64,000 bases of DNA from an uncultured Clostridia bacterium (GTDB lineage: Bacteria > Bacillota > Clostridia > Monoglobales > Monoglobaceae): assembly GCA_947631965.1 (NCBI GenBank), contig CANRNL010000013.1, forward strand, positions 1 to 64,000. The letters are read 5' to 3'. The notes beneath the pieces were generated by a model that worked only from the letters and a program-made list of their open reading frames with translations, was not told where the DNA came from and did no database searches. Position numbers and translations under genes: made by a program. Positions 53,163 to 64,000 of this stretch are shown in pieces. Every line of letters starts with the position of its first letter. Positions within the stretch are counted from its first letter, which is position 1.

Positions 53163-54116
53163 TCAGTCCGCAATTATGATTTCATACGCCGCAGTCTGCG
53201 GAGGGATGCTCTTTGTCATCATTGTGGAGCATACCGCCTGCACCTTCATACCCGCCTCAAGGTCGGATACGGTGTAAGCTCTTTTGTTAACCTCGTGATG
53301 AACGCTCGTATCATCACTAACGGTGAGAAGTATCTCTCCGTAGTTCTCTTCCGAGATAAGCACGCCTTCCTCGCTGACCTCTTTTACGGTTCCCTCATAT
53401 ACCGCGCTTACGGGAGCGGTCTGGCTAACCTGCAAGGACGGGTTCTCAGGTTCGGTGTTTACTGCTTTTACAAGAATTTCAACGGCTACCGCGCTCGTCT
53501 GCGGAGGGATGCTCATAGTCATAGCGTTTGAGTAGAAAACCCGAAGAATATCGTTATCTCCGATGTCCTCAAACGAAGCGGTAAGCTCCGCGTTCTCGAA
53601 TGATGTTATTTCGGTTTCGTCGGTTACATAAAGTACAACGTGACCGCGTTCGGGGTCGTCAACCAATATGCTTTTATCATCCGCCGAAATTTCCTTGACC
53701 GTTACAATCGCGCTCGGCGCAATCTCCGCAACCTCGCCGTTTACGGTATACTTCTCGCCCATAACCTCGGACAGGCTCTCAAGGGGAATATATGTAGACG
53801 AGTCGTTTACCAGCACGGGAGCTTTTGTGAAATCGTCCTTGGACATAATTTTAAAGTCATAGGTCGTTCCCAACACGTTGACGAGCGAAGCCGTCTCGGT
53901 GTCGTTGTTCCACGAAACCTCATAGCCGAGAGCCTCTCCCACCGCGCGGAGCGGCACGAATACGCCGTTCTCGTTCGAGATAACCTCTACGAGAGTATCG
54001 CCCGCCATAACGCCCGAAACTGCCGGTGCGCCGTCGGCGTACGCCATAACCGCGGACGCTCCCAAAAGGGATATTGCCGCCGCCACGGAAATTATTTTCT
54101 TAATTGCCTTTTTCAT
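53163..54116 (-). CDS. Exported copper-amine-oxidase-N-like protein with duplicated SIPPQT modules
   Basis: A 317-residue exported protein. The signal peptide ends near AYADG. Residues about 30-145 form a copper amine oxidase N-terminal-like domain (NGVFVPLRAVGEALGYEVSW and STYIPLESLSEVMG), common in secreted clostridial proteins and probably wall-binding. Residues 150-235 and 240-317 are two homologous beta modules, each ending in a matching motif: MTMSIPPQTSAVAVEILV and MTKSIPPQTAAYEIIIAD. There is no catalytic residue set known to me. Possibly an extracellular binding protein. It is monocistronic. Confidence 0.82.
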   Translation of the reverse strand: MKKAIKKIISVAAAISLLGASAVMAYADGAPAVSGVMAGDTLVEVISNENGVFVPLRAVGEALGYEVSWNNDTETASLVNVLGTTYDFKIMSKDDFTKAPVLVNDSSTYIPLESLSEVMGEKYTVNGEVAEIAPSAIVTVKEISADDKSILVDDPERGHVVLYVTDETEITSFENAELTASFEDIGDNDILRVFYSNAMTMSIPPQTSAVAVEILVKAVNTEPENPSLQVSQTAPVSAVYEGTVKEVSEEGVLISEENYGEILLTVSDDTSVHHEVNKRAYTVSDLEAGMKVQAVCSTMMTKSIPPQTAAYEIIIAD

Positions 54117-54602: not shown

Positions 54603-55532
54603 TTAATTATTGATTTCCGCATAGTTTGTCAGTAAAAACTCATATGCTTTTTCAGCCAAACGACCTATTTCGATTCGCGTCTGCGCTGAATTTACGGTGT
54701 TGTTTGTAAGTACGGCGACGGCAAAAGCCGACTTGTCGGAAAACACAATTCCTACATCGTTTTCCACATTTTCAAGCTCTCCGGTTTTGTTCGCAACCAC
54801 AACGTTTTCGGGTAAAAACAACGGTATTTTCGTTCTGACCGTCTGCCCCTTCATAATTTCAAGCATTTCCCGATACGGGCTGTTGTCACGATTGTTGTAC
54901 AATTTTTTCAGGAAGCACATTACATCGTCCAAAGATGTGTAATTATCCAAGCCCGCCTCTCGCGCGGCATTATCGAGCATTTTTCTTTCCAGCACCGTTT
55001 GTGTATAACCGTTCGCTTTAATATACTCGTTGACAGCATCCATACCAAACCTGTCAATCAATGTATTTGTTGCCTGATTATCGCTGTTTTGTATCATTTT
55101 TTTAACCAACGCTTCAACACTTTGGTTGCCTACCGTTTCTTCAAGATTGATTTTTCCCTCACTTGCGCCGGTATAAATATATTCCATAATAAATACCTTA
55201 ATTACGCTCGCGGAAGGCGTTTTTTCGGATTTGTTACAATAGTAGGCAGCGTCGTCAAAATAATAAATTCCGTAGTACACGTTTTTCGCGTAAAGCAACA
55301 GTTGCTCGTCGGAAAAAGGATTTACAACGGGAGCGCCCGTTCCCGCAGGCTGCGAGGAAGATCTTTCATCAACGCCCAAATCGGTCATAACTTTTTCCGT
55401 CTCGGCATCGTCGCCAATATCGTCAGCTGTGTTTTTCTCCTTCACCGCACTATGAAAGACCGCAACCAACGAGACGGCAATCAGCACGACAAAAATAAGA
55501 ATTATCAGTAAAATAAAGTGTTTTCTATTCAT
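54603..55532 (-). CDS. Membrane-anchored class A beta-lactamase-like serine hydrolase
   Basis: A 309-residue protein with an N-terminal membrane anchor (FILLIILIFVVLIAVSLVAVF, residues 6-26), a disordered linker to about 65, and a beta-lactamase-fold domain. Active-site motifs are present: SxxK Ser108-Lys111 (SASVIK), SDN 149-151 (NSDNQATN) and KTG 248-250 (ANKTGELE). The loop reads LERKMLDNAAREAG, which lacks a clear class A ExxLN deacylating Glu, as in beta-lactamase-2 type serine hydrolases. It may be a slow beta-lactamase, a peptidase, or a wall-binding protein; it is oriented with the domain outside. It is the last gene of a three-gene zinc-ribbon cluster. Confidence 0.87.
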   Translation of the reverse strand: MNRKHFILLIILIFVVLIAVSLVAVFHSAVKEKNTADDIGDDAETEKVMTDLGVDERSSSQPAGTGAPVVNPFSDEQLLLYAKNVYYGIYYFDDAAYYCNKSEKTPSASVIKVFIMEYIYTGASEGKINLEETVGNQSVEALVKKMIQNSDNQATNTLIDRFGMDAVNEYIKANGYTQTVLERKMLDNAAREAGLDNYTSLDDVMCFLKKLYNNRDNSPYREMLEIMKGQTVRTKIPLFLPENVVVANKTGELENVENDVGIVFSDKSAFAVAVLTNNTVNSAQTRIEIGRLAEKAYEFLLTNYAEINN

Positions 55533-55540
55533 AATATCCG

Positions 55541-56572
55541 TTATAACCCCTGTGCCTGTCGGTTAATTTCGCCGAGCAAATCCGAAACCAACGAAGTTGC
55601 GTTTGCCTTTACGGTTTCCGATGAACTTCCCATATCCTTTGTCATTATCGCCACGCAGTAATCCCTGCCCGCGCCCGTAACAACGGCAAACACATTGTAC
55701 GCGGTGCCTATTCCGAGACCTCTGTGCGCATACACCGTACCGATATTCGGCAGGACAACTCCATCTGACTTAAGATTTGCATTCATCTCTTTGTATGCGC
55801 CCATTTGATAAACTTTAGCCAAAAAAGCTACCGCGTCATTTGCGCTGGTATAATTTTCATACCCCTGTTTGCTCGCTTCCGTATCTCCGAATTTTCGGTT
55901 AAATGAAGTTGACATATAAGAAAGCTGTCTAATCTCGGCGTTTACGCTGCTCAAACCACCTAAAGAATTTATAACCGCATTGGCGGAATTGTTGTCCATC
56001 GCGGTCATCATCTTGTCCGCCGTTTCACGCAGAGTAATGTTCGTGCTGTCTTTTCCGTATGCCAACACATATAACGGAAGATAAAATCCTGAAGCTATAA
56101 ATTCGTTTCCCGAATTATATGTTGTATAAAAAACTCCGGTCTCGCAGTCGCATATTGCTACCGAGACATTGGCAGGAGCTGTTTTTTGGGAAATAACCAT
56201 TCCTATTTTGTCCATATCAAAGACATTGCGGTTTATTTCGCTATTTCTGTTTTCCATAGGCGTTTCCGCCGTTTCGCGAGGCGCTGCCGTCTGCTGTACT
56301 GCGGTTGAATCTTTCGGTTTGTCCGCAGGTACGGATTTAATATACTCAAGGACAAAGAAACCGCACACGGCTATTACCGCCGCAACAACAACCGCTATTG
56401 CAACAATCATCATTATCTTATTGGGATTGTTTTTTCTTCCAACGTGGGCGTATCTATTTGTATTTTCGGTTTTTGGAGCCACAGGTTTGGAATTTATGTT
56501 AACTTTTTGACCGCAATTACCGCAGTATTCGGCTCCGTCCTCTATCTTTTTCCCGCAGTTGTTACAAAACAT
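55541..56572 (-). CDS. Zinc-ribbon membrane protein with degenerate beta-lactamase-fold ectodomain
   Basis: A 343-residue protein with three parts. A cytoplasmic zinc ribbon has Cys3, Cys6, Cys17 and Cys20 (CNNCG, CGNCG). A basic linker leads to a single helix at 53-78. The outer domain aligns with the adjacent serine hydrolase but has lost catalysis: SxxK is ASGFY (Ser kept, Lys changed to Tyr), SDN is MDN in MDNNSAN, and KTG is HRG in YAHRGLGIG. It is therefore probably a receptor or structural pseudoenzyme. The stop is eight bases from the hydrolase start, so the two are probably co-translated. Confidence 0.85.
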   Translation of the reverse strand: MFCNNCGKKIEDGAEYCGNCGQKVNINSKPVAPKTENTNRYAHVGRKNNPNKIMMIVAIAVVVAAVIAVCGFFVLEYIKSVPADKPKDSTAVQQTAAPRETAETPMENRNSEINRNVFDMDKIGMVISQKTAPANVSVAICDCETGVFYTTYNSGNEFIASGFYLPLYVLAYGKDSTNITLRETADKMMTAMDNNSANAVINSLGGLSSVNAEIRQLSYMSTSFNRKFGDTEASKQGYENYTSANDAVAFLAKVYQMGAYKEMNANLKSDGVVLPNIGTVYAHRGLGIGTAYNVFAVVTGAGRDYCVAIMTKDMGSSSETVKANATSLVSDLLGEINRQAQGL

Positions 56573-56625
56573 AAATAACTGTCTCCTTTCATATATAGCG
56601 CATTATACAGAGAAAATTCAAATTT

Positions 56626-57567
56626 TCAATCTCGGCTTTGCCATTTCTCTATTCCGCGGTCACCCAATTCCTGAATATCCGAAATAATCGCGCCGATTTC
56701 TCTGATTGCGCTTTCGGTCTCTTGGGTTGATAAAACTTCCGCAAAGCCCAAACCCGAAGTGCCGTTCTTTTGAATATTAATTGCCGGCAAGGGGTTCCTA
56801 GCTTTTATGGAGATAACCAAATTCGGCTTAAAGCTGAACAAAAGAAGGTCTGCCAATATAATTATCAACGAAATGATATAAAAAACCACGAAAAAGGCAG
56901 AAGATAGCATAAGAGCCCCAAAAGCACCGACAGATATGCCGAGTGGAATCAGCTTCAGCAAAAAATGTTTATGTACGCAAAAAAACGGAATCAGCCCTGC
57001 AAAGCCGAGCAAAACGCCAAGGATTAACCCAAAAGCATTTAACGACATAGCGGTAATGGCAAGGCGAATAATAGAAGCGGACAAACCCGCCACAATAAAC
57101 CCAAACAAAAAGTCCAAAAAGTGAAATTTGAAATTACGGGCGGATTGTATTCCTTTGATTTCATCAATTGCAAATTCGTTCTGCTGTGTTATTCTGCCCG
57201 AAATCGAGCGACCTGTCGAACGAAATATCAAGCGTTTGTTCGTGACCTGCAATCGTCCTTCGGCGCGTTTAAAAAGCCAGCGTGTTCTAAGTGTCGCCAA
57301 GTTATATTGTTTTACCGGTATTTCTCCTTCGCTCGCCTTAACACAGTCGGGAACAATATTCATACCACGCTCGTAAAGACCCATTCCGTCGTTTTCGGGC
57401 TCTCCTATTCCCATTTGGTTTTTCAGCGCCACAAAAAACGATTTTACCGTCATTGGTTCTCCCGTTTCATCATATCCTCCGTTGCTTGCCGAAATTTGCG
57501 CCGCGCAATTCCGGCAAACCTCTCCCTCTTCAATTGGAGCTCCGCAATTCGTGCAAAATTTTCCCAT
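56626..57567 (-). CDS. Zinc-ribbon membrane protein with PH-like domain
   Basis: A 313-residue protein. An N-terminal zinc ribbon has Cys5, Cys8, Cys18 and Cys21 (CTNCGAPIEEGEVCRNC). Residues about 75-145 resemble a bacterial PH/GRAM-like domain (RWLFKRAEGRLQVTNKRLIFRSTG). Four hydrophobic segments between 150 and 250 form the membrane part (FLFGFIVAGLSASIIRLAI and others). The C-terminal tail is cytosolic. The function is not known; it is first of the three intact genes of this cluster and shares the zinc-ribbon N terminus with the next one. Confidence 0.8.
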   Translation of the reverse strand: MGKFCTNCGAPIEEGEVCRNCAAQISASNGGYDETGEPMTVKSFFVALKNQMGIGEPENDGMGLYERGMNIVPDCVKASEGEIPVKQYNLATLRTRWLFKRAEGRLQVTNKRLIFRSTGRSISGRITQQNEFAIDEIKGIQSARNFKFHFLDFLFGFIVAGLSASIIRLAITAMSLNAFGLILGVLLGFAGLIPFFCVHKHFLLKLIPLGISVGAFGALMLSSAFFVVFYIISLIIILADLLLFSFKPNLVISIKARNPLPAINIQKNGTSGLGFAEVLSTQETESAIREIGAIISDIQELGDRGIEKWQSRD

Positions 57568-57654
57568 TTCAATTTATCCTCCTTGTATTTAAAAATATAA
57601 TTATAGTTATCTATTGATTGAATGTTCCTATGCCTGTAATCGCGGGTATACGGT

Positions 57655-58030
57655 TACAAAAGCAAAACGCTTAAAACGGGTACGGTTAAAAATCCGATTG
57701 CGCAATCCTACGATTTTCGTATCGCCGTTTCGGTATTTTGCACCGGCTTGTTAATCTCACTCGTTTTAATGGGAATATCGGATACACAAAACGCAGAATC
57801 TCTGTCGTTGTTAATCGTTTCTATATGATTCTCCGTTACGTCGGATGTGATTTTAAGTTTGAGCGCCCGTTAAAAGGCAACGAGACTCTGGCTGAAAAAT
57901 TTTTTAAAATATAATTTCTTTTTGGCGAGCGGAAGCAATGTTTGATTATCCTTCAATCTGCTCCCGCATTTAGTGTAAAAAAACCGAACCGTCCTTATTT
58001 GGCGCTCCGTATTCGTGGCACAGCACAACG
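57655..58030 (-). pseudogene. Decayed zinc-ribbon transmembrane gene
   Basis: Reading the minus strand across frames gives the outline of a zinc-ribbon protein. One frame reads VVLCHEYGAPNKDGSVF near 57975-58030, matching the family pattern C-x-x-C-G-A-P-N-x-D-G with the second Cys changed to Tyr; a frameshift then gives FYTKCGSRLKDNQ. Further on, DRDSAFCVSDIPIKTSEINK looks like a hydrophilic linker, interrupted by a stop before GFLTVPVLSVLLL, a membrane helix. Frameshifts, stops and a lost Cys ligand point to decay. It lies between the promoter and the intact cluster. This is by-eye reading and remains tentative. Confidence 0.55.
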
Positions 58031-58083
58031 GTTCTTCACTTTTAAACACATTTATGAACCAAAAAACGTATTTAATGAATATG

Positions 58084-58113
58084 ATTATATCATATTATAT
58101 TTTTTCTTGTCAA
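58084..58113 (-). promoter_or_regulatory. Consensus promoter facing the zinc-ribbon cluster
   Basis: On the minus strand, TTGACA (58113-58108) and TATAAT (58089-58084) are both perfect, with an 18-base spacer. It would transcribe the decayed gene and, lacking an evident terminator, the three cluster genes. Confidence 0.7.
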
Positions 58114-59589: not shown

Positions 59590-62499
59590 TTAATAGTACT
59601 GTTCAATATAGTTATATGCTTTATCAAAGACTTCCTTATCCTTGATTTTATATTTTACCCATACGACACTGCGAAGAGCCTTCTTGACCTCCTGACGGCC
59701 ACCGGTCGTGCTCTGCCATCCATCAAAGCGGACAATCTTAACAATGTCATCAATATCGGTAACAATACGCTCCACGATTACCGGGGTATTGGTATTCTTC
59801 ACGCCGTTGAAAAGTTCCGTCAATGCCGCTTTGCCCTTATCGATTTCTTCCTCCGGCACAACTTCCTTCTCGGCTTGCGCTGCTTCTCTTGCGAGCTCAA
59901 GCAGCATCTTCAGAAACTCGATACTGTTAATCAGCCCCTGCTCATGCTGTTCGCGGAGCTTCTCCAACTTGTCACCCAGACGCATAAACTTCGGATCGTC
60001 GGAGTGCTTACGAATACGGGCTACAAGGTCAATCTCGACTTTCTTCGCTGCATTCTTTGCACCTTTGTGCTTCTCAATGAAGGCATCTATGAGTTCTGCG
60101 TTAAGGGAAAGAATATCCTCATCCTCATGAACCTCACCGATGTCTATGTTGGAGTTTACTATTTCCATCGTCTTAGGTCCGAGTGCAGCCCAGATAAGAC
60201 CACCGCCGCCATTAGCAGGCTTTACGGATTCATATACCTTAGTCAGCCATACATAATCAGTTTGGATAGGTGAAAGCATAGGATCGGGAGAGACTGCGTT
60301 CCATGCACGGTTAAGCACTTGGTAGTCTGCCGCAAACTTATCCTTCTCAGCATTTTTAGGCAAGCACTCCTGTGCTGCCATTAAGCCTTCCCAGCCGTCT
60401 ATAGTACGGTCAACACCCATGAAATAGCTCAAACACTTTCTAAGGAGCGCCGGAATCTGTTTCTTAACTTCCTCGATATTTGTAATGACCTTCTTCATGC
60501 TGCCTTCGTCAAAGTCCAGAGCCTTTGCCACGTTATCAAAGATTCCGATGTAGTCGACAATCAAGCCGTGCGTCTTACCCTCATTGAAGGTACGGTTTGT
60601 ACGACAGATTGCCTGCAACAAGGTGTGATCCTTCATAGGTTTATCCAAGTACATAACCTGAAGAATAGGAGCGTCGAAACCGGTCAGCAGCTTAGCTGTA
60701 ACGATGACAATCTCAAGCGGATCGTTAGGGTCTCTGAAGCGGTCGAGTATCTTTGCTTCCTCATCCTTCGAACGACGGTACTTTTTGTACTCATCAGCCT
60801 TGTCGTAGTTGGTATCCATAACGATTGTCGAGCATTCTTCTCCGAGAAGCTTGTCAAGCTCGGCTTTATACTTCAAGCAGCAGGGGCGGTCGTAGACAAC
60901 CACCTGCGCCTTGTATCCGTTCGGACGAATCTTTTCAGTGAAGTGTTTTGCAATGTGTGCGCAGACCTTATGAATACGCCTCTCGTTATACATGATAGCC
61001 TGCATATTTACGCGTTTCGAAAGCTCAGCCTTATCGGAATCTGGAAGGTCACGCGTCAAAATATCAAACTCGCGGTCCATCGTATCTCTGTCCACACGAA
61101 GATCAACCGGCACCGGCTCAAAGTTAAGCGGCAATGTCGCATGGTCGCGGATAGAATCTGAGAAGGAATACTTGCTCATGTATCCGCTGCGGTCCTCAGT
61201 GGCCCCGAAAGTAACAAATGTATTCTTATCCAGACGGTTGATAGGTGTACCTGTCATACCAAAGAAGAATGCGTTCGGAAGGGCAGTTCTCATTTTGATA
61301 CCGAGGTCACCTTCCTGCGTTCTATGGCACTCATCGACCATTACAATGATGTTGTCTCGCGGGCTAAGCTCACCGGTGACTTCCTGAAAACGGAAGATAG
61401 TCGTGATGATAATCTTACGAATATCCTGTCTCAGAATTGTCATAAGCTGTTCACGGGTAGATGCTGATTCGAGGTTCCCGACATCAGAGGAGTGGAACTG
61501 CGCTGTAATCTGCGATTCTAGATCCAAACGGTCATCAACAATAATGACCGTAGGATTCCCAAGGTCAGGAAGCATACGGAGCTTCACCGCAGCAAACTCA
61601 ATAAGGTAGGATTTACCGGAACCCTGAAAGTGCCAGATAAGACCTTTCTTTGGATATCCTGCACGCACACGCTCTACAATCATGTTTGCGCCTTCGTACT
61701 GCTGATAGCGGGCGATGACCTTGTACTTACAATAATTGTTGTCGGTCGCATAAAGTGTAAAGAACTGGAACAGATCCATAATCTTATACTTCGTAATCAT
61801 ATCCTGCACGCTGGTCTGTACTGCTGCCAGGGAACCATCCGACTTATCGTCCGTTGTATGCCAAGGGCCGTACTTTGAAGCCGGCATGCAGACGGAACCG
61901 TAACGATAATATTTACCCTCGGTAGCAAAGTTAAATACATTCGTTACAAACATCTGCGGAATGCTCTGCTCATACTTGTTAATATCCTGTGCTCCGTCCA
62001 GCCAGGTGATAGCAGAACGGACCGGAGTTTTCAGTTCACCGATGACAAATGGGAATCCGTTCACAAGGAGGACAATGTCCAGACGCTTGCCTCCTTCCTT
62101 CTTCGGATACACCCACTGATTCGTTACAACATACCGATTCTGATCCGGTTTGCCATTAATCTCGGTTCCGAAGAAGTCAATAGATACCTGCTTGCCGTCT
62201 TCTCCAAACGGATATGAATTCTTTTCGAATACCATCTGCTTGAATGCTTCGTTTTGGGTGACAAGGTTCTGCTCGTTTGTCGAGAGGAAAAGAGTGCGCA
62301 GCTTATATATTATCTCATCAGCACGTGATTCATCCTTTGCAATTTCGGGATTGAGTCTTATAAGCGCATCACGCACCATAGATTCCACCATGACATCACT
62401 TTCTTCTCTGTCAAGGTCATCTGCTGAGATGTACTCCCAACCATTTTTCTTGAGCGTTGATATAATCATCTGTTCAGTTGTGTTGTCTTCATTAAACAT
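59590..62499 (-). CDS. hsdR: Type I restriction enzyme, HsdR subunit
   Basis: A 969-residue restriction and translocase subunit. The N-terminal nuclease is of the PD-(D/E)xK kind, with LDIVLLVNGFPFVIGELKTP supplying the D and E-x-K residues near 140-165. Two RecA-like helicase domains follow: Walker A FQGSGKSY, DECH in MVDECHRTQ, and TGFDAPILQVMYLDKPM. The C-terminal helical domain should contact HsdM. The ATG at 62499 has AGGAGG upstream and overlaps the end of hsdS by eight bases. hsdM is not in the window. Confidence 0.94.
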   Translation of the reverse strand: MFNEDNTTEQMIISTLKKNGWEYISADDLDREESDVMVESMVRDALIRLNPEIAKDESRADEIIYKLRTLFLSTNEQNLVTQNEAFKQMVFEKNSYPFGEDGKQVSIDFFGTEINGKPDQNRYVVTNQWVYPKKEGGKRLDIVLLVNGFPFVIGELKTPVRSAITWLDGAQDINKYEQSIPQMFVTNVFNFATEGKYYRYGSVCMPASKYGPWHTTDDKSDGSLAAVQTSVQDMITKYKIMDLFQFFTLYATDNNYCKYKVIARYQQYEGANMIVERVRAGYPKKGLIWHFQGSGKSYLIEFAAVKLRMLPDLGNPTVIIVDDRLDLESQITAQFHSSDVGNLESASTREQLMTILRQDIRKIIITTIFRFQEVTGELSPRDNIIVMVDECHRTQEGDLGIKMRTALPNAFFFGMTGTPINRLDKNTFVTFGATEDRSGYMSKYSFSDSIRDHATLPLNFEPVPVDLRVDRDTMDREFDILTRDLPDSDKAELSKRVNMQAIMYNERRIHKVCAHIAKHFTEKIRPNGYKAQVVVYDRPCCLKYKAELDKLLGEECSTIVMDTNYDKADEYKKYRRSKDEEAKILDRFRDPNDPLEIVIVTAKLLTGFDAPILQVMYLDKPMKDHTLLQAICRTNRTFNEGKTHGLIVDYIGIFDNVAKALDFDEGSMKKVITNIEEVKKQIPALLRKCLSYFMGVDRTIDGWEGLMAAQECLPKNAEKDKFAADYQVLNRAWNAVSPDPMLSPIQTDYVWLTKVYESVKPANGGGGLIWAALGPKTMEIVNSNIDIGEVHEDEDILSLNAELIDAFIEKHKGAKNAAKKVEIDLVARIRKHSDDPKFMRLGDKLEKLREQHEQGLINSIEFLKMLLELAREAAQAEKEVVPEEEIDKGKAALTELFNGVKNTNTPVIVERIVTDIDDIVKIVRFDGWQSTTGGRQEVKKALRSVVWVKYKIKDKEVFDKAYNYIEQYY

Positions 62500-63100
62500 A
62501 TAAGTAACCTCCTGTCTTGATTCGTTTTTTCATACTTGTCTTGAAGTAGCAATTTTGATTTGAACATATCCGAGCAGCAAATTTTGATTTATCGCTCTGA
62601 CGAACAAAGTCAGCAAATTGTTCTTGGAGACTTAGTGGAGGGAGCAATATTTTGCGATTGCTTAGATCTTCTTTGTTAAAACCCGCTTGGGCTCCCCTAC
62701 CGGAAGCAATAGCTATGATATAGTCCTGAAAATAAGGCAATAAAAAATATTTTTGCAGATAAATACTGTTAAGTACTCTGTTATCAGGAATAGATTTCAT
62801 TATAGCTACGTTATAGGCACCTGCATGACCTGTAAGTATTTTCCCTACGGAAGCGCCATATCTGCCAATCAAAACATCATCTTTAGTGCAGGTTTTGATA
62901 GAACTGCTAAAACGTACATATTCTGCCTTAAATTTTCCTTCCTGTGTAAAATCCCGAATTTGAAGCATTCTTATGTATCCTTCGGCAGGTTCTTGGATCC
63001 AATCCTTTTTTGGAGGTTGCGAACCACCCTGAAAATCACATACATCAGTGAGTACAGCTTTTTCCCATCCTTTTGGATTTTTCTCTATATCCCCAAACAT
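62492..63100 (-). pseudogene. hsdS: Half-length HsdS specificity fragment, possibly silent
   Basis: The open reading starts MFGDIEKNPKGWEKAVL, which corresponds to the central conserved helix that normally joins the two target-recognition domains of HsdS, so this is one half only (202 residues). The second-TRD body follows (LIGRYGASVGKIL, GAQAGFNKEDLSNRKILLPP) and it ends LQEQFADFVRQSDKSKFAA, after which the tail (RICSNQNCYFKTSMKK) does not look like the usual helix. Reading upstream in frame gives FNSQFIE up to within 20 bases of the recombinase stop, with no ribosome binding site. It is probably a donor cassette or a truncated gene. Confidence 0.75.
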
Positions 63101-63126
63101 CTCGATAAATTGAGAGTTGAAAAAAA

Positions 63127-64000
63127 CTATCCGATGAATTTACGATGCGATTCCTTAACATTGTTTTGATTCACCATAGCATACTGAAGCGTTGTATCAA
63201 TACTTTGGTGGCCAAGAAGCTGCTGTACCTGTTCGATTGGCATCCCTTTATCAATTGCCATCGTCGCCAAAGTTCGGCGGAACTTATGCGGATGTACTTT
63301 CTGGAAGTTTAACTCTCGTCCGATTTTACGGAGGCGGATTTCCACACCGCTTATCTGTAAGCGTTCAAACGGCTTAAGCAGCGATACAAATAATGCCTCA
63401 TTCTTATCTGCTCGTTCGGCCAGATATCTCTGCAAATGTATCTTTGTTCGAGCATCAAAGTAAACCTTACGTTCCTTGTTGCCCTTTCCAAAAACGATAC
63501 ATTCCCTATTGTCAAAGTCCACGTCGTTGCGATTAAGCTTTACAAGCTCTCCGACACGGATTCCTGTCGATGCTAATAAATCAATCATCGCAAGATCGCG
63601 TGTGTTATCACAATGATCCCGCATCAACTCCAGCGATTCGTCTGTATAGGTCTCCTTTACTGTTTTACCGGTCTTGACTTTATGTATCCTTCTCACCGGG
63701 CTCTTAACGATGTAGTCTTCATCTTCAAGCCACGCAAAGAAGCTGGACAGGATGCGTCTCACATTGTCAAGGGTAACTTTACTAATTGTTCCTCGGCGTT
63801 GATAATTGTCGAGGTATGAGCGAAGGTCCTCTGTTGTTATCTGACATTCCGGTTTGCTTATGCTTTCCAGCATATTCCGGATTGTAGATTCATAGTAGCG
63901 GAGGGATTTTTCTGAACATCCCTCTACACGCTTTGCGGCTATAAAAACCGGCAGCATGTCCTTTTTCTCTGTCGTGTCTTTTTTCTCTACATATTCAAGA
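63127..64000 (-). CDS. Tyrosine recombinase (XerC/D-like), 5-prime end cut by the window
   Basis: At least 290 residues of a tyrosine site-specific recombinase. The N-terminal SAM-like core-binding domain includes EKSLRYYESTIRNMLES. Catalytic residues of the second domain are all visible: Arg in STGIRVGEL, Lys in GKGNKERKVYF, His-x-x-Arg in HPHKFRRTLAT, His in LLGHQSIDTT and the nucleophile Tyr in LQYAMVNQN. The first Met in view is at 63957, but the frame is open to the window edge (LEYVEKKDTTEKKD), so the true start is likely outside. It sits directly before the half hsdS gene, the arrangement seen in shufflons of type I restriction loci. Confidence 0.92.
   Translation of the reverse strand, partial: LEYVEKKDTTEKKDMLPVFIAAKRVEGCSEKSLRYYESTIRNMLESISKPECQITTEDLRSYLDNYQRRGTISKVTLDNVRRILSSFFAWLEDEDYIVKSPVRRIHKVKTGKTVKETYTDESLELMRDHCDNTRDLAMIDLLASTGIRVGELVKLNRNDVDFDNRECIVFGKGNKERKVYFDARTKIHLQRYLAERADKNEALFVSLLKPFERLQISGVEIRLRKIGRELNFQKVHPHKFRRTLATMAIDKGMPIEQVQQLLGHQSIDTTLQYAMVNQNNVKESHRKFIG

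What the first reader, a model, noticed from the sequence alone, without database searches (positions are those of the whole stretch)
54603..58113. Clustered zinc-ribbon membrane proteins and beta-lactamase-fold domains
Three minus-strand genes form an apparent operon: zinc ribbon plus PH-like domain plus helices; zinc ribbon plus helix plus degenerate beta-lactamase fold; membrane anchor plus serine hydrolase with intact SxxK, SDN and KTG. A cytosolic zinc finger physically joined to an outer beta-lactamase-like domain, next to an active-looking homologue, suggests a transmembrane sensing or wall-surveillance module I cannot place in a named system. The three gene products share either the zinc ribbon or the hydrolase fold, which argues for a joint function. 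The whole is inference from motif reading.
Basis: partly seen in the sequence, partly recalled or inferred. Interest (0 to 1): 0.7.

Follow-up and report, generated by a model that had tools for sequence, protein, structure and literature searches.

The report
Zinc-ribbon pseudo-beta-lactamase paired with peptidase
Gut Clostridia carry a conserved two-gene unit that pairs a wall-peptidase-like enzyme with a catalytically dead copy of itself, anchored in the membrane and ending inside the cell in a zinc ribbon; it looks like an undescribed wall-remodelling or wall-sensing pair, while the third neighbouring gene belongs to a different recurrent gene cluster.

Summary
The three genes are real and anatomically as described: P1 (zinc ribbon, PH-like domain, four TM helices), P2 (zinc ribbon, one TM, degenerate class A beta-lactamase fold) and P3 (anchored serine hydrolase with SVIK, SDN, KTG). 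The three-gene operon is not the conserved unit; P2-P3 is. Six further Clostridia genomes carry the same bicistron, with overlapping or nearly abutting genes. The seven P2s form one clade and the seven P3s another, with compatible branching. In every P2 the catalytic Lys73 is Tyr; Ser70 is Trp in six of seven; yet the dead pocket is rich in invariant residues. P3 lacks the beta-lactamase Glu166 (Met185, aligned with Leu158 of cyanobacterial PBP-A), so it reads better as a PBP-A-like DD-peptidase than a beta-lactamase. P1 is a PH domain split by a four-TM insert; its 40 relatives sit with TcaA-like zinc-ribbon proteins and a soluble VirD4-like ATPase, never with P2-P3. A promoter-like site between P1 and P2 supports separate units, though all three share low GC3, suggesting joint acquisition. 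The mechanism (P2 as tethered pseudoenzyme partner of P3) is inferred, not shown.

The parts
55541..56572 (-). P2: zinc ribbon (C3,C6,C17,C20) + TM helix 51-78 + degenerate class A beta-lactamase fold (aa 115-343); ex-catalytic positions S161 (Ser retained only here), Y164 (K73), M192-D193-N194 (SDN), H283-R284-G285 (KTG)
   Evidence: Pfam; AF2 and structural match Z 25; alignment of 7 orthologues
54603..55532 (-). P3: N-terminal membrane anchor + PBP-A-like serine peptidase domain; SVIK, SDN, KTG intact; Glu166 position is Met185
   Evidence: Pfam PF13354 1.6e-44; PDB sequence matches 4hes, 4ewf, 2j7v; orthologue alignment
56626..57567 (-). P1: zinc ribbon + PH-like domain split by a four-TM insert; upstream neighbour, member of a different recurrent cluster
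   Evidence: AF2 pLDDT 87, PH match Z 9.3; 40 relatives
56602..56629 (-). promoter-like TTGAAA-16-TATAAT between P1 and P2, likely start of the P2-P3 unit
   Evidence: 11 of 12 matches; one of nine sites of at least 11/12 in the whole 64 kb, both strands
58084..58113 (-). promoter-like TTGACA-18-TATAAT, extended -10, 517 nt upstream of P1
   Evidence: 12 of 12 matches
57970..58078 (-). possible structured leader segment ending in a U tract (attenuator or small RNA); no Rfam match
   Evidence: MFE -28 kcal/mol, z -2.2; Rfam negative

Best explanation
P2-P3 is a conserved pseudoenzyme-enzyme pair acting on the cell wall. P3, held at the outer membrane face by a TM segment or lipid anchor, is a class A-fold serine peptidase of the PBP-A type, most likely a DD-carboxypeptidase or endopeptidase. 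P2 arose from a related peptidase domain and lost the acyl-enzyme chemistry, but it keeps a conserved pocket outside and has one TM helix and a cytosolic zinc ribbon. The best guess is that P2 binds the same wall peptides and/or P3 itself and couples that to the inside through the zinc ribbon, recruiting or tuning P3 or signalling wall state. P1 is a probably separately transcribed neighbour, found there only in the window genome, from a family that normally sits with other zinc-ribbon membrane proteins and a VirD4-like ATPase. Shown by sequence or model: folds, motif losses, pairing, shared inheritance. Inferred: peptidase activity, P2-P3 contact, signalling.
For: Same P2-P3 bicistron in six other genomes, stop and start overlapping or within a few bp in most. 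P2s form one clade (99/98) and P3s another (99/99), both pairing L113 with L115 and setting the window apart. All seven P2s have Tyr at K73; Ser70 is Trp in 6 of 7; K234/T235 are replaced; yet 11 of 23 invariant ectodomain residues fall in the three ex-catalytic segments (39 of 226 residues, p 3e-4). Five of the six other P2 ectodomains have no PF13354 match, but profile comparison with P3 gives E 3.7e-16. P3: SxxK Ser and Lys, SDN and KTG invariant in eight sequences, Met185 invariant and aligned with PBP-A Leu158; PBP-A is a DD-carboxypeptidase/endopeptidase and class A beta-lactamases differ from it by an omega-loop Glu (PMC11189452). Neighbours elsewhere include wall or spore-wall genes: SpoIIP (L112, L114), PgdA/PdaB-type deacetylases (L111, L115), GlmS and MurT (L115).
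Against: No activity, complex or signalling was tested; no multimer model was possible. The zinc ribbon may be only a docking or assembly element with no signalling role. The window P2 keeps a Ser at the nucleophile position, so residual chemistry there cannot be excluded. Distribution is sparse (seven genomes plus the variant G066), and the window's own neighbours are not obviously wall genes. The invariance test used segments chosen from P3 and treats related sequences as independent.
Confidence: 0.5

Rival explanations
1. P2 is a TcaA-like envelope organiser: the zinc ribbon docks a cytosolic partner and the dead lactamase fold is simply a wall- or teichoic-acid-binding module; P3 is an independent enzyme that is only co-expressed.
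For: Same topology as TcaA (one TM, intracellular zinc finger, large outer part; PMC10328498); zinc ribbon + TM of P2 matches the TcaA model weakly; zinc-ribbon proteins abound in these genomes.
Against: Does not explain why the outer module is always a paralogue of the adjacent P3 and inherited with it. No TcaA outer domain is detected in P2 or its orthologues.
Confidence: 0.25
2. All three genes form one functional module: P1, P2 and P3 act as one sensing complex.
For: P1, P2 and P3 all have low GC3 (0.446, 0.453, 0.468; ranks 2, 3 and 5 of 41 ORFs), suggesting joint acquisition; P1 relatives often have a zinc-ribbon TM protein directly upstream (13 of 36 with enough flank).
Against: No P1 near P2-P3 elsewhere and no P2-type domain near P1 elsewhere; a promoter-like site of its own for P2.
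Confidence: 0.13
3. BlaR1/MecR1-like beta-lactam receptor: P2 is acylated by beta-lactams and signals through the zinc ribbon, with P3 as the induced beta-lactamase.
For: Analogous layout of an outer lactamase-like domain and a cytosolic zinc domain; BlaR1 senses by acylation of its sensor domain (PMC9834060).
Against: K73 is Tyr in 7 of 7 and Ser70 is Trp in 6 of 7 P2s; the zinc ribbon is not a metalloprotease; P3 lacks Glu166.
Confidence: 0.05
4. P2 is a decaying duplicate with no function.
For: Catalytic residues lost.
Against: Seven orthologues across three families keep an intact frame, zinc ribbon, TM and their own invariant motif A-x-G-F-Y-L-P-x-Y.
Confidence: 0.04

Closest known systems
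PBP-A of Thermosynechococcus elongatus (PDB 2j7v; PMC11189452)
   Same: P3: class A-fold serine peptidase with SxxK, SDN, KTG and no omega-loop Glu; P2 has the same fold (Z 22.6)
   Different: P3 is gene-paired with a dead zinc-ribbon paralogue; sequence relation is distant (E 6.7e-12); activity of P3 untested
Veillonella parvula 'beta-lactamase class A-like' protein (PDB 4hes)
   Same: Nearest solved sequence to P3 (E 5.8e-20) and best fold match of P2 (Z 25); Met at the Glu166 position in the alignment
   Different: No zinc ribbon; its function was not established here
TcaA of Staphylococcus aureus (PMC10328498)
   Same: P2 topology: intracellular zinc finger, one TM, large outer part
   Different: Outer part is a pseudo-beta-lactamase, not TcaA domains; NCBIfam TcaA match is 21 bits against a cut-off of 550
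BlaR1/MecR1 beta-lactam receptors (PMC9834060)
   Same: Outer lactamase-like domain joined through the membrane to an inner zinc-containing domain
   Different: P2 lacks the residues for an acyl-enzyme; inner domain is a ribbon, not a protease
VirD4/TraD-type coupling ATPases next to P1 relatives
   Same: Concerns the P1 family only
   Different: No such ATPase found in the window genome (81% complete)

Membership tests
Class A beta-lactamase (for P3) | Fold and PF13354 signature | tested here: met
   PF13354 1.6e-44
Class A beta-lactamase (for P3) | SxxK, SDN, KTG | tested here: met
   Catalytic residues invariant in eight P3 sequences
Class A beta-lactamase (for P3) | Glu166 in the omega loop | tested here: not met
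   Met185, invariant; aligned with PBP-A Leu158
Class A beta-lactamase (for P3) | NCBIfam class A cut-off | tested here: not met
   76 bits against 200
PBP-A-like DD-peptidase (for P3) | Class A fold without catalytic omega-loop Glu | tested here: met
PBP-A-like DD-peptidase (for P3) | DD-carboxypeptidase/endopeptidase activity | not testable with these tools
   Needs an enzyme assay
Active serine acyl-enzyme (for P2) | Ser70 and Lys73 | tested here: not met
   Ser only in the window (Trp in six); Tyr in 7 of 7 at K73
Class A beta-lactamase fold (for P2) | Fold | tested here: met
   VIA-align Z 25.0, 223 residues, rmsd 3.1 to 4hes
TcaA (for P2) | Zinc ribbon + single TM + outer part | tested here: met
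TcaA (for P2) | TcaA domains and NCBIfam cut-off | tested here: not met
   21 bits of 550; no TcaA domain in Pfam scans of P2 and orthologues
BlaR1/MecR1 (for P2) | Acylatable sensor Ser and Lys | tested here: not met
BlaR1/MecR1 (for P2) | Cytosolic zinc metalloprotease domain | tested here: not met
   Only a 23-residue zinc ribbon before the TM
Bacterial PH domain (for P1) | PH fold | tested here: met
   Z 9.3 to 3hsa and 3dcx, aligned across 56-297 around the TM insert
P1 / VirD4-like ATPase cluster (for the window locus) | ATPase downstream of P1 | tested here: not met
   21 of 27 relatives with enough flank have it; none in the window genome (81% complete)

The most novel reading that the evidence does not exclude
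P2-P3 is a new kind of transmembrane wall sensor: a dead DD-peptidase paralogue reads wall peptide or peptidase state outside and passes it through one helix to a cytosolic zinc ribbon, using non-covalent ligand binding instead of the acylation used by BlaR1.
Probability: 0.22. Interest if true: 0.75.

Novelty: new variant of a known kind. Interest (0 to 1): 0.5.

Why it matters
It would give a paired active/dead serine peptidase system for the cell wall, with a physical link to the cytosol, in gut Clostridia whose wall control is little studied. The window protein is a useful intermediate: it still matches the beta-lactamase family and keeps the old Ser, whereas five of its six orthologues have drifted beyond Pfam recognition. 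It also points to a likely mis-annotation: P3-like proteins would be called beta-lactamases although they lack the deacylating Glu.

Tried and rejected
Phage or plasmid origin: no relatives of P2 in viral contigs; in plasmids only one partial match, in a Fusobacterium record. Known defence systems: no PADLOC match for P1, P2 or P3. Three-gene conservation: not found. A known riboswitch in the 517-nt leader: no Rfam match. BlaR1-like beta-lactam sensing: rejected on residues. tRNA adjacency as a general feature of the pair: close only in the window and L113. Literature searches for this architecture returned nothing.
Full report
Observation. Three minus-strand ORFs lie at 56626-57567 (P1), 55541-56572 (P2) and 54603-55532 (P3), with gaps of 53 and 8 bp. 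P3 is a PF13354 protein (1.6e-44) with SVIK, SDN and KTG. P2 carries Zn_Ribbon_1 (1.5e-7) and a weaker PF13354 match (6.7e-15). P1 has only sub-threshold zinc-ribbon and GRAM matches. P2 and P3 are paralogous (27% identity over 200 aa; profile-profile E 3.7e-16). The host is a 1.95 Mb, 81% complete assembly; a family member, G012, carries the same contig as a record titled uncultured Monoglobus sp..

Structure. The AlphaFold model of P2 (mean pLDDT 72.8; about 80-93 over most of the outer domain) shows a TM helix at 51-78 and a class A beta-lactamase fold at 115-343: Z 25.0 to 4hes, 22.6 to PBP-A. The P1 model (pLDDT 87) has PH-like strands at 84-148, four TM helices at 150-245 and the closing strands and helix at 246-301; VIA-align matches PH domains across the insert (3hsa and 3dcx, Z 9.3). 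Foldseek alone gave no match for P1 below E 0.001, so the PH assignment rests on that second look plus weak GRAM and bPH_3 matches.

Conserved unit. A search with the P2 outer domain over 391 genomes of the class found six genomes with strong matches (E 8e-17 to 2e-25), each with a second match just downstream. Fetching them shows the same bicistron: zinc ribbon + TM + degenerate domain, then an anchored or lipoprotein-like hydrolase with intact motifs. Genes overlap or lie within a few bases in most. They come from two families, f22 and f15, other than the window's; the window's own family has none in 37 other genomes, including a same-genus genome 93% complete. A looser variant occurs in G066 (L117), with a third zinc-ribbon gene; its lactamase domain is a long branch outside the main P2 clade. 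A phylum-wide draw of 398 genomes found only the window.

Tree. In a 26-row tree the seven P2s form a clade (99/98) and the seven P3s another (99/99). Both set the window apart and pair L113 with L115; weakly supported forks aside, the branching is compatible. This fits inheritance as a pair, though no species tree was used to separate co-evolution from common descent.

P2 is dead but constrained. In seven sequences the Lys73 position is always Tyr; Ser70 is Trp in six and Ser only in the window; KTG is replaced by H/Q-x-G. Invariant residues include A-x-G-F-Y-L-P-x-Y at the old nucleophile helix, N194, N198, Y281 and G285. Eleven of 23 invariant outer-domain residues lie in the three ex-catalytic segments (39 of 226 residues, p 3e-4; the segments were chosen from P3 and the sequences are related, so this is indicative). 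Five of the six other orthologues have no PF13354 match.

P3 is not a typical beta-lactamase. Its Glu166 position is Met185, invariant in the eight aligned P3-type proteins. In the HMMER alignment to PBP-A this residue faces Leu158, the position altered in the PBP-A entry 2j9o titled L158E mutant. PBP-A is a DD-carboxypeptidase and DD-endopeptidase that prefers amidated muropeptides, and class A beta-lactamases differ from it by an omega-loop glutamate (PMC11189452). Peptidase function of P3 is inferred from this.

P1 belongs elsewhere. P1 relatives are rare (5 of 391 class genomes). A named-genome scan gave 40 loci, mostly Clostridia of animal guts, plus Treponema, Cloacimonadota and Fibrobacterales. 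Of 27 loci with enough downstream sequence 21 have a VirD4/TraD-like ATPase, usually after one or more variable soluble genes; of 36 with enough upstream sequence 13 have a zinc-ribbon TM protein within 300 bp, two of those tested with weak TcaA second-domain matches. Profile searches found no P1 in the P2-P3 loci and no P2-type domain in the P1 loci. L111 starts 227 bp before P2, so P1 cannot be excluded there. The ATPase was not found in the window genome, with the caveat of incompleteness.

Transcription and origin. A 12/12 promoter-like site lies 517 nt upstream of P1, and an 11/12 site between P1 and P2; only nine sites of this quality occur in the 64 kb on both strands. P2 orthologues L111, L112 and L114 also have good promoter-like sites directly upstream. 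So P2-P3 probably starts its own transcript. Against full independence, P1, P2 and P3 all have unusually low GC3 (ranks 2, 3 and 5 of 41 ORFs), so the block may have been acquired together, near tRNA-Gln.

Function. The best reading is a pseudoenzyme-enzyme pair at the wall. Neighbours in other loci include wall or spore-wall genes: SpoIIP in L112 and L114, polysaccharide deacetylases in L111 and L115, GlmS and MurT in L115. MurT is part of the lipid II amidation enzyme, which is suggestive beside a PBP-A-like enzyme, but it is one locus. Whether the zinc ribbon signals, docks a cytosolic protein or only helps assembly is open.

Verdict. Observation confirmed; three-gene interpretation partly supported; the conserved and interesting object is P2-P3. 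Interest 0.5: a specialist would find the paired dead/active peptidase with a cytosolic zinc ribbon unexpected, but its parts are of known kinds and no function is shown.

Noticed in passing
L052-L091 (e.g. L049 1740-5976; L048 1622-6988; L059 291-6899): A recurrent, apparently undescribed cluster: zinc-ribbon TM protein (some TcaA-like), split-PH four-TM zinc-ribbon protein (P1 family), highly variable soluble protein(s) of about 100-1100 aa, and a soluble VirD4/TraD-like ATPase without TM segments. The variable gene between a conserved membrane protein and an ATPase suggests a secretion, conflict or envelope machine; the ATPase weakly matches PADLOC mad8 (1e-15).
   Followed up: partly
window 59590-63999: Restriction-type genes (HsdR-like 59590-62499, HsdS-like 62492-63100 with GC3 0.28) next to an ORF that looks like a tyrosine recombinase (63127-63999) near the contig end; possibly a variable specificity locus or a genomic island. 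Names are from reading the sequence, not from a family search.
   Followed up: no
window 57568-58084: 517-nt leader between a perfect promoter-like site and P1, with a stable fold ending in a U tract near 57975; possible attenuator or small RNA, no Rfam match.
   Followed up: partly
L117 6643-9838: G066 variant: two zinc-ribbon TM proteins flank a P3-like hydrolase; the lactamase domain of one keeps SDN but has lost the SxxK Lys, maybe an independent or earlier stage of pseudoenzyme formation.
   Followed up: partly
L051 5081-6199 and L032-L039: Other genomes of the family carry a different PF13354-like protein with repeated N-terminal YLsDGWydaPV-type motifs and SSN in place of SDN, in L051 beside ribosomal protein genes.
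   Followed up: no
window 53163-54116: Secreted protein with a copper amine oxidase N-terminal-like domain and DUF3221 domain(s), downstream of tRNA-Gln.
   Followed up: no
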